NCBI GenBank assembly: GCA_020845895.1
Contig: JADLEX010000117.1
Coordinates: 1 to 49,508, forward strand
Reading direction: 5' to 3'
Origin: Deltaproteobacteria bacterium
GTDB lineage: Bacteria > Lernaellota > Lernaellaia > JACKCT01
DNA length: 49,508 bases
A model generated the notes under the pieces. It was not told where the DNA came from. It did not search any database and saw nothing but the letters and a program-made list of their open reading frames with translations. This document shows positions 7,369-31,378 of the stretch, piece by piece (the first letter of the stretch is position 1; each line of letters starts with the position of its first letter). The position numbers and the translations under genes were made by a program.

Positions 7369-8595
7369 ATGGGTTCCCCGGTAAAGGAAAAACCGTTCTC
7401 GTACCGCTACGAAGCGTTCGGCGGAATCATCCAGCTCGAGCATCCGCAGGCGTTGCTCTATGTTGACCGCGAGTTCATGCGGCGCCTCGGTTACGCGGAA
7501 AGTCCACTCTGGACCGATCGCGTCTCGACCGAGTCGCTGTTGTCCGCGCCGACCGAGGTGCAGCTCTCGTTGACCAACCGCTGCGGCGCGGGTTGCCGCC
7601 ACTGTCACGCGGACAGTCGACCGGGCGACGGACCGGGCCGCGAGCTCGGGCGCGACGGCATGATCGCCGTGCTCGGCGAACTCGCCCGCATGCGCGTGTT
7701 CCATGTCACACTCGGCGGCGGCGAGAGCACCGAGTTGCCGTGGCTCTTCGAAATCGCGCATCTGGCCCGGGGGATGGGCGTCAATCCCAGTTTGACGACC
7801 AACGGATTCTTCGTGACCGAAGACAACGTCGTCGAATTCAACATCTTCGACCGCGTCAACGTCAGCCTCGACGGCGTGGGCGACCGATACGGCACGCACC
7901 GTGGCGTGAGCGGTTACGACCGGGCGGTCTCCGCATTGCGTTTGCTTCGCGACGAGGACATCCCCGTCGGGATTCACTGCGTTGTCTCGCGGGACAACTT
8001 CGATCACATCGACGAGGTGTTCCACCTCGGCCGCGAAATCGGCGTGCAGCAGCTCGAACTTCTCCGGTACAAACCGGCGGGAAGGGCGGGACGCGATCTG
8101 CTCGATTACCTGCGCCACGATCTCACCGATGAACAGGCATGGGACTTCTTCCCGCGCGTGATGCGCCTGGCGCAGGATCACCAGACGCCGCTCGCGCTCG
8201 ACTGCTCGTTTACCCCGTATCTCTACGCGCACGGACCCGACCCGAAGTTGATGGAACGGTACGGCGTGACCGGATGCCTGGGCGGCAACACGCTGTGCGG
8301 GGTCACGGCCGACGGCTTGGTGTCCGCGTGCCCGTTCTCGTCGTCCGAGGGCCGCTCCATCGATGACATGCACGACTGGTGGGGATCGGAGGACACGTTC
8401 TTTTCGTATCGCCACTGGATGGACGCCGCTCCCGAGCCGTGTCGAAGCTGCGACTACCTCTCCGTGTGCCGGGGCGGCTGCCACGCGGTCTCGAAATTCG
8501 TCTTCGGCGATGTTTACAGCCCGGATCCGGGTTGCCCGCTCGTCCGCCGTCACTACGCGCATTCCGGCCTGCACCGGGCGGTCGCGGCGGATTAG
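7369..8595 (+). CDS. Radical SAM/SPASM-domain enzyme, orphan
   Basis: Predicted radical S-adenosylmethionine enzyme of 408 residues. The 4Fe-4S motif CGAGCRHC gives Cys72, Cys76 and Cys79, followed by a TLGGGES strand and TTNG, as in PqqE-like proteins. The C-terminal third is a SPASM domain with the expected cysteine spread (TGCLGG, LCGVTADG, SACP, then CRSC, VCRGGC and PGC) for two auxiliary clusters. SPASM enzymes typically modify ribosomal peptides or make peptide-derived cofactors. The first 60 residues, including FGGIIQLEHPQALLYVD, precede the SAM core and are unassigned. No peptide precursor, PqqD-like or transporter gene lies next to it. Its stop codon overlaps that of the convergent gene. 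Substrate unknown. Confidence 0.88.
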   Translation: MGSPVKEKPFSYRYEAFGGIIQLEHPQALLYVDREFMRRLGYAESPLWTDRVSTESLLSAPTEVQLSLTNRCGAGCRHCHADSRPGDGPGRELGRDGMIAVLGELARMRVFHVTLGGGESTELPWLFEIAHLARGMGVNPSLTTNGFFVTEDNVVEFNIFDRVNVSLDGVGDRYGTHRGVSGYDRAVSALRLLRDEDIPVGIHCVVSRDNFDHIDEVFHLGREIGVQQLELLRYKPAGRAGRDLLDYLRHDLTDEQAWDFFPRVMRLAQDHQTPLALDCSFTPYLYAHGPDPKLMERYGVTGCLGGNTLCGVTADGLVSACPFSSSEGRSIDDMHDWWGSEDTFFSYRHWMDAAPEPCRSCDYLSVCRGGCHAVSKFVFGDVYSPDPGCPLVRRHYAHSGLHRAVAAD

Positions 8596-10370
8596 TCCCC
8601 CGGCGGCATCGTCCATTCCCACGTCAGCAGGGCGAAGTACGGCGGCGAATACAGCAGCGCGAACGCGACCAACGCCGCGGGCGCGGCGAACGAAAGCAGG
8701 ATCGCGTACATCGTCAGCGCCGCGAGAAATCTCGGAAACACCTCCACCAGACTGATCCCAAAATGTCGGCGCGATCGCCACGCGACGATGGCGAAACCCG
8801 TCGCGATGACCGCTGCGCCGACGAGGACGATCGGATCGGGAATCGGCGTCCACGAGATTCCCTTGAGCCCCGCGCGCCACGTGATCTGTAAGAGCAGGTG
8901 CGTGGAGATGAGCGCGACGAGCGGCATCGCGAAGACGCGCCGACCGGAGAGGAATTCCAGCGCGGCCAGTGCGCCCAGCGCGAAAAATGCCCACCCGAGC
9001 ATGCCGATCACGGGAACGCCGAAGATGCCGCGGCCTTCCCAGAACCAGAGCCCCGCGTTGGTGCAGACGGTCTCGATGAGAGACGCCTCGACGCCGACCA
9101 GCGCCGCGCCCGCGACCACGCCGCGCGCGCCGCGAAGCCCGAGGCGGCGAACGAACTCGCGCGCGTGAATGATGACGAGCGGCCAGATCAGCACGATCGC
9201 AATCGGCACATACCCAATGAACGCGTGCCAGTCGGGGCTGTACCGATAGAACCGGTAGACGGCGATGGCGCTGTGTTCGGCGGCCCAGGCGGAAATCGCC
9301 ACGAGCGCATAGGTGCGCGCGTATTCGCGGTCGCCGATCACGGACCGCATCCAGCGCCACGAAACGAGACCGATCGCGACGAGCGCACACTCCACGGCGA
9401 GCGGAACGGACCACGCGAAGGGCCAGCGCACGGGCAGCCCGACGATCACCCAGAACACCCAGATGAAATTCATCGCGGCGAAGGTCCACGTGATGGCGAC
9501 GACGTCGGCCTGCGTGAAACCCCGCCGCCGCCCCCGCACGAAGAGGGCGAGCTGCAACGCCGGGGCTGCGATGAGCACGAACTCCTGCAGATCGAAGAGC
9601 CGCGTGCACGCCCCGACGAGGATGCAAGCCGCGGACACGAGGTTGAGGACGATCACGATGCGCGAGGCGACGGTCTCGCCGTGGACGACGGGATAGGTGG
9701 CGATCCCAGCGCGGCGGTCGCCGTCCAGATCACGAAGGTCGTAGATGATCTCGAAGCCGACTTCGAGCGCGGCGAGGAATCCGGCTATCAGACCGATGTA
9801 GGCGACGCCGACGCCGTCGCGAAGCGCGAGCGAAGAGAGCGGGTAGGCAAACAGCGTCAGCAGAAAGCCGACGCACGAGGCGGTGTTCTTGAAGAAGTAG
9901 ACTTCCTTCAGGCGGAAGCGACGTCCGCGTCGGCGAAGGATCGGGAAATTGTAAACGAGACCGAGCAGGTGATAGGCGAGCCGCGGCCAGATCAGAGCCG
10001 GCATCCAGAAGAGGTGAACCGCGAATCCCGCGACGTAGAGCGCGATCGCGGCCAAGAGGATGGTCCGGGCGTTTTGCCGGGCGAAATCCGCGCCCGTCAC
10101 CCGGTTGGCGACATCCTCGGTTTGATCGACGACGCGGTTGACGATGTTGACGAGGAACCAGTCGATGGCGACGACGAGCGCGAAGGCGGGATGGAACGCG
10201 CCCGTGAGCATCTTGCCGAAGACCAGCGACCCGCCGGCCGCGATCAGCACGATGTGGAAGCGCGAGACGTGGTAGAGGTTTCGGAGCACGATCTTTCCGG
10301 GTTTGAATAATGCGAATCGCCGACAGCGGATTACCACGCCGCAACGGTCTTCGTCACGGGGATTCGTCAC
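8592..10370 (-). CDS. UbiA-family prenyltransferase fused to a CruF-like carotenoid synthesis domain
   Basis: A 592-residue integral membrane protein with two halves. Residues about 30-310 are UbiA-like: the first Asp-rich motif NRVVDQTED (Asn78, Asp82, Asp86) and the second DLRDLDGD (Asp211, Asp214, Asp218) are both intact, so prenyl-diphosphate binding looks possible. Residues about 320-590 resemble the CruF/DUF422 carotenoid hydratase family, with LWFWEGRGIFGVP and LGW at 441-460. In haloarchaea separate UbiA-type lycopene elongase and CruF act in sequence in bacterioruberin synthesis, so a fused C50-carotenoid or related enzyme is the leading idea. The GTG start overlaps the upstream pfkB-like gene by 17 bases; an internal GTG at 10337 is an alternative. 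No crtI or crtB is in the window. Confidence 0.75.
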   Translation of the reverse strand: MTNPRDEDRCGVVIRCRRFALFKPGKIVLRNLYHVSRFHIVLIAAGGSLVFGKMLTGAFHPAFALVVAIDWFLVNIVNRVVDQTEDVANRVTGADFARQNARTILLAAIALYVAGFAVHLFWMPALIWPRLAYHLLGLVYNFPILRRRGRRFRLKEVYFFKNTASCVGFLLTLFAYPLSSLALRDGVGVAYIGLIAGFLAALEVGFEIIYDLRDLDGDRRAGIATYPVVHGETVASRIVIVLNLVSAACILVGACTRLFDLQEFVLIAAPALQLALFVRGRRRGFTQADVVAITWTFAAMNFIWVFWVIVGLPVRWPFAWSVPLAVECALVAIGLVSWRWMRSVIGDREYARTYALVAISAWAAEHSAIAVYRFYRYSPDWHAFIGYVPIAIVLIWPLVIIHAREFVRRLGLRGARGVVAGAALVGVEASLIETVCTNAGLWFWEGRGIFGVPVIGMLGWAFFALGALAALEFLSGRRVFAMPLVALISTHLLLQITWRAGLKGISWTPIPDPIVLVGAAVIATGFAIVAWRSRRHFGISLVEVFPRFLAALTMYAILLSFAAPAALVAFALLYSPPYFALLTWEWTMPPGD

Positions 10371-11247
10371 CCGGCGCGGTCAGCATCCGCGCAAAGTCGT
10401 CATAGACCGACGACGCGAGCCCCAGCGCGCCGCTGACGGCGCACACCTCGGCCGCGAAGCGGGATGCGAGGTGCAGGGCGCCTGGCCAATTCAGACGCCT
10501 CATCATTCCCGCGATCACCACGGCGGCGAACGCGTCACCCGCGCCCACGGCGTCCACCCAAGCGCGGGGGGCGGTCGCTTCAACGTGATGAACCGTGTCG
10601 CTCGTCACGACATCCGCGCCGCGTTCGCCGCGCGTCATGATGATCGCTTCGCAGCCCCATTCGCTGCGCTGCCGCGCGGCGGTCTCGGTCCCCGAGTCGC
10701 CCCACAGGATCGTCGCTTCGTCCTCGTTGAGCTTGACCCAACGGGCATCCCGCGCGAGGGCGATCACCGCGTCGCGTTTCCACCACGGCGAGCGCAGATT
10801 CACGTCGAGAAAACGATTCACGGTGTGATCTTCCGTCAGCGCGGCAAACGCGTCGCGAGAGGACTCCGAACGCAGCGCGAGCGAGCCGTGATAGACGAGC
10901 CCGGGAGACCCGATCACCGCCGATCGGACCAGGACCGCATCGATGTGATCCCACGCGCGGTCGGGCACGATCTCGAACGTCGGCTGACCGTGATCGAGAC
11001 GCACCCGCACCTCGCCGGTGGGATGCACCGGATCGATCTGCACGCCCGCCGTGTCCATTCCCCAAGAACGCATGGCGGCGAGCGCCGCACGGCCGCGCTC
11101 GTCGTCTCCCACGCGCGAAATCATGAGCGGATCGAGGCCGAATCCGCGCAGGTGGCGGGCGACGTTGAACGGCGCGCCGCCGAGCACCGCGTGGCCGTCT
11201 GGGAATACGTCGTAAAGAAGCTCGCCGAAGACGACGGGACGCGTCAT
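10354..11247 (-). CDS. PfkB-family carbohydrate kinase
   Basis: ATP-dependent sugar kinase of the ribokinase/fructokinase fold, 297 residues. The N-terminal GGAPFNVARHL loop is the PfkB substrate region, and DAVGAGDAF near residue 240 is the second PfkB signature with the catalytic Asp. The sugar cannot be told from sequence; the GELLYDVFP start and length resemble bacterial fructokinase-like members. The ATG overlaps the stop of the upstream helical protein as ATGA, and the 3' end runs 17 bases into the UbiA-CruF gene, so all three are likely co-translated. An in-frame extension upstream is Arg-rich and lies inside the neighbour, so it is rejected. Confidence 0.88.
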   Translation of the reverse strand: MTRPVVFGELLYDVFPDGHAVLGGAPFNVARHLRGFGLDPLMISRVGDDERGRAALAAMRSWGMDTAGVQIDPVHPTGEVRVRLDHGQPTFEIVPDRAWDHIDAVLVRSAVIGSPGLVYHGSLALRSESSRDAFAALTEDHTVNRFLDVNLRSPWWKRDAVIALARDARWVKLNEDEATILWGDSGTETAARQRSEWGCEAIIMTRGERGADVVTSDTVHHVEATAPRAWVDAVGAGDAFAAVVIAGMMRRLNWPGALHLASRFAAEVCAVSGALGLASSVYDDFARMLTAPGDESP

Positions 11248-13268
11248 GATCGGACTTCCAGCGCGCGCGTCGCGCGAAGCATGCCGAGGGCGTAGAGCGA
11301 CGTGCCGCAGCCCCAATCGGGCGAGAGGTAACCGGCGGTCGGCTCATCGCGGCCTGTGTGCCCGTAGTTTTCGACGATCGCGCCGCGGTCCGAAGCGCGA
11401 AATCGCGCTATGTTGCCGGGAGCGATGCGGGCGTTGTCCTCGATCAGCATGAGCGAATAACACGCGCGCAGCGCCGCGAGGGCGCGCGCGCGAAACTCGT
11501 CGTCTCCGGTCGCTCGGAACAAATCCGCGAGCAGCGGGACGAAGAGCCCCTGACGGGCGTCGGAGAGTTCGGCATCGGTGTTCATGCACGCGAATCCGCC
11601 GAATGCCTCGTAACGCAGTCGTGGGATGTTGTGCGGCTGCTGAAACAGGCACAGGCGCGCCGCGAGGGTTCGCGCAAGGCGAAGGCCCTCCGGCCATGCG
11701 TCGGCGAGATCCAATGCGGCGCGGGCCGCCCAATAGATCGACATCGTGTTCGCGGCGCGCGTGCCGGTACGCGGATCGACCCCGGCGGGACGCCCCGCGC
11801 ACGACAGGGCGAGCTCGAAGTCGTTCCAGTCGTCGGTCGGTAGGATCTCGCGCTCGATATGCCGAAGCGCATCGATCGCCGCGTCGCGCCAGCGCGGATC
11901 GGCGTCGAATTTCGCGAATCGGGCGAGGAATAGGGCAGGCGCGGCGGACGCGGCCGATGCGCGCAGAAACGGATCGGCGATCCAACCCGTCGCGGTTCGG
12001 CGCACCCACGACGGAAACGTCGCGCCCTCGCGCACGCGAACCAGGAACTCGGCGATCTCGCGGCAACGCCTGGCGATGCGTGCGTCGGCGCAAACGTGCT
12101 CGTGCCATTCGAGCAGATGAAAGCCGGTGACGGCCATGTCGGGCAGGTGGTACGCGTCGGCAATCATCTCAAAGGCTCGTGTGCCGCGCAGCCAGCGCGG
12201 CGGCTCGCCGAGCAGCGCGACCGAGGGCGACGCGCCGTCCTCGAGCGGCGCCAAGAGTGCGAGTTCGACCATGGCCCCGGCGCGCCGCTCGGTTTCGGCG
12301 TCGCCGACTGACCGGGCGCAAAGCGCCGCGCCGAGCGCCGTGCGGACCTGATTGAACCACACACCGAAGGTCGCGATCGGCGCGACGGCCATGCGGCCCG
12401 AATGCAGGAGCGATGTGAGAAGCCGGTAGCCGTTCGGTCGCGTGAACATGTGCTTCTGCACGGCGGCCATGACGCCGAGCAATCTTTTCTGATGTCTCAG
12501 AAACCGGTCGAACTCGACGCGTGTCATCACGCGCGGCGACCGCTTTGCCGTCAGCGTCTGCGTCGTCATGCCCGCGACGCGGGCCGGGCCGCGATCCCAC
12601 TCGCGGTAGAGATCGTCGCGGAAAATCCGGTCCATGGCCGCATGCGCGAAGCGGTCGTACGCGGCGTCCGTCTCCAAGGGGACATCGATCGACGTGCGCG
12701 TCGCCCAGATCAACGTCGCCGCGCGTTCGTAGGCGTCTTCGAGCGAACAATCCGGCCACGCGGCGACGAGATGTGTCCAGGAGATGTCGCCGGCGGGAAG
12801 GCGGGCCGACGTCGCGCGCGCAAAGAACACATGGCCGCGCGTCGACACATCTCCGACGCCATGCCGGATCGTCAGACCGCGCCCGTCACGATCCAGATCG
12901 ACATAGCTCGCGATTTCGGGCGGCGCGCATGGGAGAATCGGGGCGAACATCGCGCAGCCCCGTTCGGTTTCGACGAGCACCGCCCCGTGGCGAAAGACGT
13001 GGTCGGCGATGACGTCGCCGGGCCGGGGAAGGAAATACGGCGTCGCCATTCGGGTGATCGCGGCGTTCCAGCGCCAACCGAATTCGAGGTGACGGGCGGA
13101 GGAACCCCGGCGTTCGCGAGACGCGACCACGACGCGCAGCGCGCCATCGCCGAACGATTCGCAGGACCGGACGATGCCCGTGCCGACGCGCTCCGGCGCG
13201 CACTCGATCCCGACGACGGCGAGCGGCGCGGCGGGAGAGGGCGTGAAGTGGTGCGCAAGATCCGGCAT
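11244..13268 (-). CDS. Uncharacterised large protein, probable (alpha/alpha) barrel enzyme
   Basis: I do not recognise a named family. The 674-residue product has no signal peptide or membrane span. Residues 1-170 look beta-rich. From about 190 on the sequence is a run of amphipathic helices with aromatic and acidic conserved-looking stretches (TDDWNDFELALS, YEAFGGFACMNTDAELS, ENYGHTGRDEPTAGYLSPDWGCG), the pattern seen in six-hairpin glycosidase-like toroids. A carbohydrate-active or isomerase role is inference, weakly supported by the PfkB kinase directly downstream (ATGA overlap). The start lies 52 bases after the end of an upstream lipoprotein gene; cysteines are few. Confidence 0.7.
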   Translation of the reverse strand: MPDLAHHFTPSPAAPLAVVGIECAPERVGTGIVRSCESFGDGALRVVVASRERRGSSARHLEFGWRWNAAITRMATPYFLPRPGDVIADHVFRHGAVLVETERGCAMFAPILPCAPPEIASYVDLDRDGRGLTIRHGVGDVSTRGHVFFARATSARLPAGDISWTHLVAAWPDCSLEDAYERAATLIWATRTSIDVPLETDAAYDRFAHAAMDRIFRDDLYREWDRGPARVAGMTTQTLTAKRSPRVMTRVEFDRFLRHQKRLLGVMAAVQKHMFTRPNGYRLLTSLLHSGRMAVAPIATFGVWFNQVRTALGAALCARSVGDAETERRAGAMVELALLAPLEDGASPSVALLGEPPRWLRGTRAFEMIADAYHLPDMAVTGFHLLEWHEHVCADARIARRCREIAEFLVRVREGATFPSWVRRTATGWIADPFLRASAASAAPALFLARFAKFDADPRWRDAAIDALRHIEREILPTDDWNDFELALSCAGRPAGVDPRTGTRAANTMSIYWAARAALDLADAWPEGLRLARTLAARLCLFQQPHNIPRLRYEAFGGFACMNTDAELSDARQGLFVPLLADLFRATGDDEFRARALAALRACYSLMLIEDNARIAPGNIARFRASDRGAIVENYGHTGRDEPTAGYLSPDWGCGTSLYALGMLRATRALEVRS

Positions 13269-23726: not shown

Positions 23727-24101
23727 TCAGGAATTATTTTCCACGCTTTCGCCGGGCGCATACCGGAGGACCGTGACGTTTTCGAGCGTCACGAGACCCT
23801 CGCCCATCAGGGCGTCGAGGCGCGGCAGGACGCGGTCGATGTTTTCTCGGCTGTCGACGACCTCGATCACGATCGGCAGATCCTGCGAGAGGCGAAGCAG
23901 GTGCCCGGTGTGCAGGTGGCTCTTCGCTCCGAAGCCCAGGATCCCGCGCAGCACCGTCGCGCCGGCGATTTTTTCTTTGCGCAGCAATTCGACGATTTCC
24001 AGGCAGAGCGACTTGCGACCCGCACGGTCGTCCTCGCCGATGAAGATGCGCATCAACGTCTGTGTCCCGGTCAGCCGCCTCAACGTGCGAGTTTCGGTCA
24101 T
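23727..24101 (-). CDS. DUF190 family protein
   Basis: 124 residues of the DUF190 family, a PII-like ferredoxin fold often encoded beside crcB. Visible features are LMRIFIGEDDR at the start, an LVELLRKEKIAGATVLRG-like helix-strand region (GATVLRGILGFG) and LPIVIEVVDS. Biochemical function is unknown. The ATG overlaps the crcB stop (ATGA) and is preceded by GGGAGGCGGGAG on the coding strand. An upstream in-frame extension lies inside crcB and is rejected. Convergent with the HD-GYP gene. Confidence 0.88.
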   Translation of the reverse strand: MTETRTLRRLTGTQTLMRIFIGEDDRAGRKSLCLEIVELLRKEKIAGATVLRGILGFGAKSHLHTGHLLRLSQDLPIVIEVVDSRENIDRVLPRLDALMGEGLVTLENVTVLRYAPGESVENNS

Positions 24102-24487
24102 CTCCCGCCTCCCAAAAGGAATCGTGACAGGTGAACCGCCGCCGCGCAGGCCATCAGGCACAGCACGACGTTGAGACCGACATTCGCGCCCGCGCGCCAC
24201 CAGTCGCCGTCCTCGAGGTATTTCCACGTTTCATAGCTGAAGGTCGAAAACGTCGTGAACGCGCCGATGAATCCGATCCCGATCGCCGATCGCCATTCTG
24301 CGGAAATCCACGTGCTGCCGAGGCTGATTTCCATGATGGCGCCGAGCAGGAAAGACCCCAGCACGTTGACCGCCAGCGTGCCGTGGGCGAACGACGTTCC
24401 GAAGATCCGATAGACCGCACCGCTCATCGCGTAGCGTCCGATCGCGCCCAAGGCGCCGAATCCCCCAATCAGGAGCCAGATGCGCAT
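24098..24487 (-). CDS. crcB: Fluoride channel CrcB/FluC
   Basis: 129-residue four-helix membrane protein that exports fluoride as a dual-topology dimer. The family signatures are clear: GGFGALGAIGRY at the start, AVNVLGSF in helix 2, and GFIGAFTTFSTFSYE in helix 3 with the pore phenylalanines. The start has GGGAAGG nine bases upstream. It is coupled to a DUF190 gene, a common pairing. I looked for a fluoride riboswitch in the 5' region and found none; a symmetric site is present instead. Confidence 0.95.
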   Translation of the reverse strand: MRIWLLIGGFGALGAIGRYAMSGAVYRIFGTSFAHGTLAVNVLGSFLLGAIMEISLGSTWISAEWRSAIGIGFIGAFTTFSTFSYETWKYLEDGDWWRAGANVGLNVVLCLMACAAAVHLSRFLLGGGR

Positions 24488-29624: not shown

Positions 29625-30545
29625 CTAGCAACCGCTCTCTCGCAGGAAGGCCGCGAGATCGAGATAGAAGTCCATGTAGGGGAAATCGATGAACCCAAGC
29701 GGATGTCCGACGATGCCGAAATGATCGGTCGGCAGCGCGCCGAGGTTCTCCCCGTACGTGGCGGAATCGCAGCCGATAATGCCGTCGTTGCAGCCTTCCA
29801 TCGACGCGATGATCGCGTGCGTGATTTCGAGCGGCGCGAAAATCTCCTCGCCGTTTCCGTGGAACGAAAAATACTTCACGCGCTCGTCGTCGGGATTCGC
29901 GGGATTGAAGACGTCGCGCACGTAGGGGCGCGTCACCTGAACCACGCCTTCCCAGTCCATGCCGAGCAGTTCGAGCACCGCGTCGGCCGCATCCTGGGCG
30001 ACGTCGGGCAGGATTCCCGTCGCGAAGTCGGCGATCGACGCACCCTGATGCGGCGTCGAGAGCGTGACAAGGCATGCGACGCGGTCGCCCCAACCGAGGG
30101 TGGAGATCAGATACCGGGCGTCGAGACCGCCCTGGCTGTGCGCGATGATGTTGATTTTCCGGCCCGGATAACGCGCGTCGATCTTGTTCGCGAGTTGGTT
30201 CGCTCGCGTTTCCATGGTGTTGATCGAGCTGACCCACGGCTCGAAGACGTCGTAGCCGAATGCCGCGTAGGTGTCCGCAACGAGATAGAAGTTCGACAGG
30301 GGTCCCAGGTATCCCCAGCCCATGAATCCGTGCGCGATGACAAGGGGGTACTTCGTCGGTCCCAACGCTTCCTCGGGCGGCGGAAGAGGCGCCCAGGTGT
30401 CGTCGTCGTCCCCAAGTTCGCCCGCGTCATCGTCATCGAGTTTGTCGTCGTCGTCATCGTCGTCACCGCTCACGCACGCGACGGCGAAAGCGCACGTCAG
30501 GACGACAATCGTCGCGAGGATCACAGATATCACCTTGGGGATCAT
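29625..30545 (-). CDS. Lipase-like alpha/beta hydrolase lipoprotein with Asp-rich linker
   Basis: 306 residues. A hydrophobic signal peptide ends in AVAC (Cys24, a slightly unusual lipobox), followed by an aspartate-rich linker, residues 28-49, with 15 Asp in 22. From residue 64 the sequence is a triacylglycerol-lipase-like fold: PLVIAHGFMGWG is the oxyanion-hole strand, IIAHSQGG carries the nucleophile Ser137, and later VTLSTPHQG, DGIIG and DHFGIVGHP supply the likely Asp and His regions, as in Pseudomonas/Burkholderia lipases. Probably an envelope-anchored lipase or esterase. The start is the ATG behind TGGAG; nine upstream codons are in frame but unlikely. No lipase foldase gene is adjacent. 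Confidence 0.85.
   Translation of the reverse strand: MIPKVISVILATIVVLTCAFAVACVSGDDDDDDDKLDDDDAGELGDDDDTWAPLPPPEEALGPTKYPLVIAHGFMGWGYLGPLSNFYLVADTYAAFGYDVFEPWVSSINTMETRANQLANKIDARYPGRKINIIAHSQGGLDARYLISTLGWGDRVACLVTLSTPHQGASIADFATGILPDVAQDAADAVLELLGMDWEGVVQVTRPYVRDVFNPANPDDERVKYFSFHGNGEEIFAPLEITHAIIASMEGCNDGIIGCDSATYGENLGALPTDHFGIVGHPLGFIDFPYMDFYLDLAAFLRESGC
30399..30464 (-). repeat. GAC/GAT triplet tract encoding the Asp-rich linker
   Basis: Runs of Asp codons (7, 4 and 4, separated by short spacers) inside the lipase-like gene. As a triplet repeat it could change length without breaking the frame. Confidence 0.7.
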
Positions 30546-30901
30546 CGTGGGCTCCATTGGGAACTCGGTCATTCATGACGGGACCAACGCACGGCGACAT
30601 CGAACCGCATTGCATCGGAAACGCTCCGTTAATTCCCTCGAATCGGAACGTCGAATGCGTTCAGTATCGATACGCCACGGCTTTCGTCCGGTCAATCCGG
30701 TGATGGTCGAAGAGCGCGATGGCACGATCGTGTCGCTTGGTCGCACGTGCCCGCACGACAGGGTCGACCGGCTTGAGGGGGACAGCCATGCCGCTGATTC
30801 CCCCGACGTCGCTATCGCTTCGCTCATGGCCGTTCAAACCGGCTTGTCGCGGAACCGACGTTTGACTTAAGATCCCCCAACGAATGAAGGGGATCGGTCA
30901 A
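30546..30901. other. 356-base divergent intergenic region
   Basis: Lies between the starts of the lipase-like and the small lipoprotein genes. It should hold both promoters, but I see no convincing -35/-10 pair on either strand; TTGACT at 30862 is too close to the downstream start. Short open frames here (for example minus-strand 30573-30827) are Arg/Ser-rich and unsupported. Confidence 0.5.
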
Positions 30902-31378
30902 ATGCGCGGGCGTGACGTGTCCTGGTTGTCGATGTTGTTGCTGTTGGCGGCGTCGTCGCTGTTGGCGGCGTTTACGGCCTGCACCGTGGACGCTGAATCG
31001 GACGACGAGGAGAACGATTGCGACGGAAACCGTGCGCCGCAGATCGCGGGTCCTTACCTGGTAACGGGCGGCGAGTTGGTCGACGAGGACACGGAGTTCT
31101 CGGTGAACGAGAAGATCGGCATCGCACTCGATTTTCAGGACAAGGACTGCAATCTCGGCAACGGGCAGATCTGGGCGTCCGTGGACGGCGAAGAGTACCG
31201 TCCGATGGTTCTCATTCGCGACAACATCGGGTGCTCCGGTTTCTTCCCCGATACGGTGCTCGGCTTCGACATCCGGCTCCAGTCCGGCACGCACGAAGTC
31301 CGCATGGCGCTGACCGACGCGTGCGGCCCGGGGTCCGAGGAGGACGTTTCGACGACGATCGACGTTGCGAACGACTGA
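30902..31378 (+). CDS. Small putative lipoprotein
   Basis: 158 residues. A hydrophobic leader (WLSMLLLLAASSLLAAFTAC) gives Cys27 as possible lipid anchor, though FTAC is a poor lipobox, and an acidic stretch ESDDEEND follows the cysteine as in the neighbouring lipase. The rest is a beta-rich, cysteine-containing domain (four Cys after the linker) with DLQ-like strands and a GTHEVRMALTDACG motif, perhaps an Ig-like fold. Function unknown. GAAGGGG precedes the chosen ATG; an ATG six codons upstream is the alternative. Confidence 0.65.
   Translation: MRGRDVSWLSMLLLLAASSLLAAFTACTVDAESDDEENDCDGNRAPQIAGPYLVTGGELVDEDTEFSVNEKIGIALDFQDKDCNLGNGQIWASVDGEEYRPMVLIRDNIGCSGFFPDTVLGFDIRLQSGTHEVRMALTDACGPGSEEDVSTTIDVAND

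What the first reader, a model, noticed from the sequence alone, without database searches (positions are those of the whole stretch)
8592..10370. Single-chain UbiA prenyltransferase + CruF-like carotenoid domain
Seen: both Asp-rich UbiA motifs (82/86 and 211/214/218) are intact in the N-half, and the C-half has the W-W-E-G/GVP/LGW pattern of CruF/DUF422. Known: in haloarchaea lycopene elongase (UbiA family) and CruF act consecutively on bacterioruberin precursors, as separate proteins. Inference: one fused enzyme could do elongation and hydration of a C40 carotenoid or similar lipid in this bacterium, and may define an unrecognised C50 carotenoid or isoprenoid pathway.
Basis: partly seen in the sequence, partly recalled or inferred. 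Interest (0 to 1): 0.6.

Follow-up and report, generated by a model that had tools for sequence, protein, structure and literature searches.

The report
Prenyltransferase fused to CruF-like partner
This bacterium joins into one protein two membrane enzymes that in about 30 other sampled species are separate but almost always inherited together, which points to an undescribed isoprenoid-lipid pathway that does not need carotenoid precursors.

Summary
The fusion is real. The 592-codon frame on the minus strand (probable start 10289, 565 aa) has a UbiA half (PF01040, E=1e-13) with both Asp motifs, and a C-half that misses PF04240 directly. Seven of 22 C-half relatives do match PF04240 (best 3e-12), and profile-profile comparison gives Prob 98%, E about 1e-14, while shuffled, reversed and unrelated controls fail. 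So the C-half is a remote CruF-superfamily member. It keeps most invariant residues, but an Asn invariant in 20/20 canonical members is Gly in 22/22 of this branch.

The fusion is one form of a conserved two-gene module. In 284 Myxococcota genomes the halves co-occur 29 times, UbiA alone 0, C-half alone 1, neither 254 (p=8e-39). They lie within 3 kb in 23 of 29: tandem, convergent, divergent or fused.

The C40/C50 carotenoid reading is not supported: no phytoene/squalene synthase (PF00494) in this 99.5%-complete genome, in six class relatives, or in 7 of 30 other carriers.

Best reading: a prenyltransferase plus CruF-type partner acting successively on a non-carotenoid prenyl lipid. Shared pathway: well supported. 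Hydration: inferred. Substrate: unknown.

The parts
8592..10289 (-). Fused UbiA + CruF-like gene, most likely extent (GTG start, 565 aa; stop codon included)
   Evidence: Relatives' N-termini align near residue 28-35; GGAAAG upstream of GTG 10289
10290..10370 (-).
   Evidence: No ribosome-binding-like sequence before GTG 10370; no counterpart in relatives
9432..10289 (-). N-half: UbiA prenyltransferase domain (about residues 28-313), motifs N78xxxD82xxxD86 and D211xxD214xxxD218
   Evidence: PF01040 E=1.1e-13; motif residues invariant in 32 family members
8595..9431 (-). C-half: CruF-superfamily (PF04240-like) membrane domain (about residues 314-592)
   Evidence: hhalign Prob 98.3 with negative controls; 7/22 family members match PF04240; AlphaFold2 pLDDT 89.4
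9003..9005 (-). Codon of G456, the position at which 20 of 20 canonical PF04240 proteins have Asn and 22 of 22 members of this branch have Gly
   Evidence: Profile alignment column counts

Best explanation
A membrane-embedded two-step isoprenoid-lipid enzyme. The UbiA half moves a prenyl group from a prenyl diphosphate, bound through Mg2+ at its two Asp motifs, to an acceptor that is not a C30/C40 carotenoid or squalene product. The CruF-like half then modifies the product or its prenyl end. By analogy with CruF this would be acid-catalysed addition of water to a terminal isoprene double bond, using the conserved Glu/Asp residues (E365, E428, E433). Fusion, or in most species adjacency, would keep a hydrophobic intermediate in the membrane between the two sites. 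Shown: domain identities, retained motifs, co-inheritance, independence from PF00494. Inferred: shared pathway, order of steps, hydration. Unknown: acceptor and prenyl chain length.
For: UbiA domain with both motifs. C-half homologous to CruF/PF04240 with controls, same order of predicted helices and strands as a canonical PF04240 protein, and shared invariants E, Y.Y, P, D/E, D/E, W, P, W. Co-occurrence in 284 Myxococcota genomes 29/0/1/254, p=8e-39. C-half gene found in 10 of 10 genomes that carry the UbiA half, including several where it is not in the same locus. Adjacency within 3 kb in 23 of 29, in every orientation. No other recurrent neighbour. Fused copies in two lineages form one clade. 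No PF00494 in the class. Two prenyl diphosphate synthases are present to supply donors.
Against: The Asn invariant in canonical PF04240 proteins is Gly throughout this branch, so the CruF hydration chemistry may not be conserved. No member has been tested. No third gene points to a substrate. The N-half is far below every NCBIfam equivalog cut-off, so its acceptor cannot be named. Co-inheritance in related genomes is not phylogenetically independent.
Confidence: 0.5

Rival explanations
1. The C-half is not a hydratase. It is a CruF-fold protein that isomerises, reduces or cyclises the prenyl product, or a non-catalytic partner that binds, stabilises or delivers substrate for the UbiA enzyme.
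For: Invariant Asn replaced by Gly in 22/22, and branch-specific invariants H491, W498, R547; obligate pairing would suit a subunit; CruF-fold proteins occur widely in this PF00494-less class, so the fold is not tied to carotenoid hydration.
Against: The acidic and aromatic core of the family is retained, which argues for a retained active site.
Confidence: 0.3
2. One reading: a fused lycopene elongase and CruF making a C50 (or other C40-derived) carotenoid.
For: LyeJ (UbiA family) and CruF act in succession on bacterioruberin precursors in Haloarcula japonica (PMC11946383, PMC9258230); 23 of 30 other carriers do have PF00494 genes.
Against: No PF00494 in the host genome, in six class relatives or in 7 of 30 other carriers. 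Of 22 C-half relatives only one reaches the archaeal CruF model TIGR03460, and weakly (7.6e-4). The UbiA gene beside PF04240 genes in G123 groups with a chlorophyll-synthase-like paralogue, not with this family, in a tree with long branches.
Confidence: 0.04
3. The module makes a modified respiratory quinone: a prenyl quinone whose side chain is then hydrated.
For: UbiA enzymes commonly prenylate quinone precursors; housekeeping-like, neighbour-free distribution.
Against: Another UbiA paralogue in the same genome is MenA-like (110 bits), and two are haem O synthases. The module is present in only about a tenth of sampled Myxococcota, so it is not the general quinone enzyme; a tailoring role is not excluded.
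Confidence: 0.12

Closest known systems
LyeJ + CruF (haloarchaeal bacterioruberin pathway; also in some actinobacteria)
   Same: A UbiA-family prenyltransferase and a PF04240 protein encoded close together and acting in succession on an isoprenoid
   Different: Separate genes there; obligate C40 substrate; the present C-half lacks the invariant Asn of PF04240; PF00494 absent from this genome; both proteins are distant from NCBIfam models
PF04240 Caroten_synth (CruF, gamma-carotene 1',2'-hydratase and bisanhydrobacterioruberin hydratase)
   Same: Predicted order of helices and short strands; invariant E, Y.Y, P, D/E, W, P, W
   Different: About 17% identity to the representative canonical member; invariant Asn replaced by Gly; host without a C30/C40 synthase
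UbiA families around digeranylgeranylglyceryl-phosphate synthase and chlorophyll synthase
   Same: Both Asp motifs; best solved relative 6m31 (MjDGGGPS), E=0.002; NCBIfam PRK12884 matched by 32/32 members
   Different: Best NCBIfam match (4.6e-15) is to a generic prenyltransferase model; window copy scores 33 bits against a cut-off of 269; no acceptor-specific assignment
IspH-UbiA Rosetta-stone fusions (PMC4746011)
   Same: Isoprenoid enzyme fused to an uncharacterised UbiA domain; one also occurs in this genome
   Different: Different partner; that UbiA domain is only weakly related to this one

Membership tests
UbiA prenyltransferase (PF01040) | Profile match above the curated cut-off | tested here: met
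   51.5 bits against 34.2
UbiA prenyltransferase (PF01040) | Two Asp-rich metal/diphosphate motifs intact | tested here: met
   N78/D82/D86 and D211/D214/D218, invariant in 32 members
UbiA prenyltransferase (PF01040) | Prenyl transfer activity | not testable with these tools
   No assay possible
PF04240 superfamily (CruF-like) | Direct match of the window protein to PF04240 | tested here: not met
   No hit at E<=1 for the fused protein or at E<=0.1 for the isolated C-half
PF04240 superfamily (CruF-like) | Homology by family profile | tested here: met
   7/22 members match PF04240, best 3e-12; hhalign 98.3%, E 2.5e-14, controls negative
CruF hydratase proper | All six residues invariant in the canonical set (E, P, D, W, N, W) | tested here: not met
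   Asn is Gly in 22/22; the D position is Glu in the window copy; the other four present
CruF hydratase proper | Host makes a C40 carotenoid substrate (PF00494 synthase present) | tested here: not met
   also absent in 7 of 30 other carriers
CruF hydratase proper | Hydratase activity | not testable with these tools
   No assay possible
Lycopene elongase (LyeJ/CrtEb) | Match to a lycopene-elongase equivalog model above its cut-off | tested here: inconclusive
   No NCBIfam model that names lycopene elongase appears among the matches; no LyeJ reference sequence was in hand

The most novel reading that the evidence does not exclude
An undescribed bacterial prenyl-lipid pathway, shared by the host's class, part of the Myxococcota, a Desulfobacterales bin and a Planctomycetota bin, in which a distinct UbiA subfamily and a distinct CruF-superfamily branch make a hydroxylated (or otherwise tailored) non-carotenoid isoprenoid membrane lipid or cofactor.
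Probability: 0.4. Interest if true: 0.75.

Novelty: new variant of a known kind. Interest (0 to 1): 0.52.

Why it matters
It supplies a tightly co-inherited gene pair, present in culturable myxobacteria, whose product is unknown and could be found with a single knockout and lipidomics. It also suggests that CruF-type proteins, usually annotated as carotenoid biosynthesis proteins, have functions outside carotenoids, so that annotation may be misleading in many genomes.

Tried and rejected
Single-sequence scan of 85k genomes found nothing, fixed by an alignment query. Direct PDB sequence searches with the single protein (spurious ubiquitin-fusion hits) and with three-member alignments gave nothing useful. 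Foldseek of the C-half against PDB and viral models gave no match with E below 0.1; the most probable PDB fold match, the Insig homologue MvINS (prob 0.80-0.82), recurs for a canonical CruF model (0.87) but with E of 0.8-2, so it is only a hint. A mixed alignment of halves (A5) misaligned C-halves onto the N-half and was dropped, so the full-length fusion was not modelled. Considered and rejected: chance resemblance of the C-half motif (controls); a one-off fusion artefact (second fused genome and conserved pairing); frameshifts in the G002 copy as evidence of decay (other genes of that assembly are also split); the neighbouring PfkB and radical-SAM genes as partners (not conserved).

Full report
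What is there. The frame 8592-10370 lies on the minus strand. GTG 10370 overlaps the end of a PfkB sugar-kinase gene; relatives begin near residue 28-35, and GTG 10289 follows a GGAAAG, so the protein is probably 565 aa. The N-half matches PF01040 (E=1.1e-13) and carries both Asp motifs. The C-half does not match PF04240 directly.

Is the C-half CruF-like? Yes, remotely. Searching relatives gave separate C-half genes in G004 and G005. An alignment query then gave 31 UbiA-half loci, most of them with a C-half gene nearby. Of 22 aligned C-half proteins, 7 match PF04240, best E=3e-12. Profile-profile comparison with 27 PF04240 proteins gives Prob 98.3, E=2.5e-14, while five column shuffles, one reversal and the UbiA family give nothing. 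AlphaFold2 gives pLDDT 89.4 for the C-half and 82.3 for a canonical PF04240 protein, with the same order of helices and two short strands. Residues E365, Y375, Y377, P389, E428 (Asp in the other 21 members), E433, W442, P453 and W460 correspond to invariant or nearly invariant positions of canonical members. The Asn invariant in 20/20 canonical proteins is Gly in 22/22 here. I therefore call it a CruF-superfamily branch, not CruF.

The pair is a module. In a sample of 284 genomes from the phylum of Minicystis rosea, 29 have both families, none has only the UbiA half, one has only the C-half and 254 have neither (Fisher p=8e-39). The test ignores shared ancestry. Thresholds used were E<1e-80 for the UbiA family and E<1e-20 for the C family; weaker hits (1e-16 and above for UbiA, 1e-10 and above for the C family) were taken as generic relatives. 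In 10 of 10 genomes picked from UbiA-half loci, including those with no C-half gene in the locus, the C-half gene is present somewhere; in Minicystis rosea the two are about 226 kb apart. Of the 29 genomes, 23 have the pair within 3 kb: 10 tandem UbiA first, 6 convergent, 5 divergent, 1 tandem reversed, 1 fused; 5 are on separate contigs and 1 is far apart. The arrangements largely follow clades on the UbiA-half tree (11 changes), and the two fused proteins, from the window and from G590, are sisters with SH-aLRT 99, nearest by path length to the tandem clade. No other neighbour recurs. In the window's own class, G000 and G002 carry the fusion, G004 and G005 the separate genes; the protein search and the C-half search found neither half in the other three. 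The G002 copy is frameshifted, as are other genes in that assembly.

Not carotenoid here. PF00494, which holds phytoene and squalene synthases, has no match in the host genome (99.5% complete) or in six class relatives, although the control genomes respond as expected. It is also missing in 7 of 30 other carriers. All six class relatives without PF00494 also carry other PF04240 proteins, so the superfamily is not a carotenoid marker in this class. CrtI was not tested.

What the UbiA half is not. The host has nine UbiA-domain genes: two haem O synthases, two decaprenyl-phosphate phosphoribosyltransferase-like, one chlorophyll-synthase-like, one IspH-UbiA fusion, one unassigned, one MenA-like and this one. 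This subfamily matches all NCBIfam models weakly. Its best solved relative is an archaeal DGGGP synthase, E=0.002.

Mechanism. Shown: two membrane enzyme domains with retained catalytic signatures, co-inherited and often adjacent. Inferred: sequential action on a prenyl lipid, prenyl transfer first, then a CruF-like step such as water addition. Not known: acceptor, chain length, and whether the C-half is catalytic. Literature searches in an open-access library found no description of this pair; absence there is not proof of novelty.

Setting. G002 is deposited as 'Deltaproteobacteria bacterium FR_14, FR-FEN-1099', so the host class is probably the FEN-1099/Lernaellota group; this is inferred from a record title and my own knowledge.

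Noticed in passing
L024 8784-10529 (-), host genome contig C57: IspH fused to a UbiA domain (PF02401 + PF01040). This fusion kind is already described (PMC4746011), there only in sulfate-reducing anaerobes; this host also has cytochrome-oxidase-linked haem O synthases.
   Followed up: partly
L027 7919-8611 (-), host genome contig C59: A second, very divergent CruF-like gene (E=7e-7 to a PF04240-member profile, no Pfam-level hit) beside glycosyltransferases and an ABC transporter; G006 has a PF04240 gene beside a similar-looking ABC transporter pair.
   Followed up: partly
L062, L063, L066, L067, L069: PF04240 proteins of about 330-350 aa in class genomes that lack PF00494, some in a run with ATP-grasp-like and ABC-transporter genes: another apparently non-carotenoid CruF-like branch.
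   Followed up: no
L072 6710-8160 and L073 7190-8907: Two different PF04240 genes lying convergently with overlapping ends, in two unrelated genomes; in L072 a UbiA gene follows.
   Followed up: no
L024, L025, L026, L028, L029, L031 and window 29625-31378: Many putative lipoproteins with a long poly-Asp stretch right after the lipobox-like Cys (CGDDDDDD), a lineage trait of unknown role.
   Followed up: no
window 23727-24487 (-): DUF190 gene (PF02641) next to a small membrane protein that looks like a CrcB fluoride channel.
   Followed up: no
window 11244-13268 (-): 674-aa protein with no Pfam or NCBIfam match, upstream of the PfkB kinase on the same strand as the fused gene.
   Followed up: no
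models m2b3408f1432b and mf653ff26da12: The C-half and a canonical CruF model share the same most probable PDB fold match, the Insig homologue MvINS (prob 0.8-0.87, E 0.8-2): a weak hint of a shared fold.
   Followed up: partly
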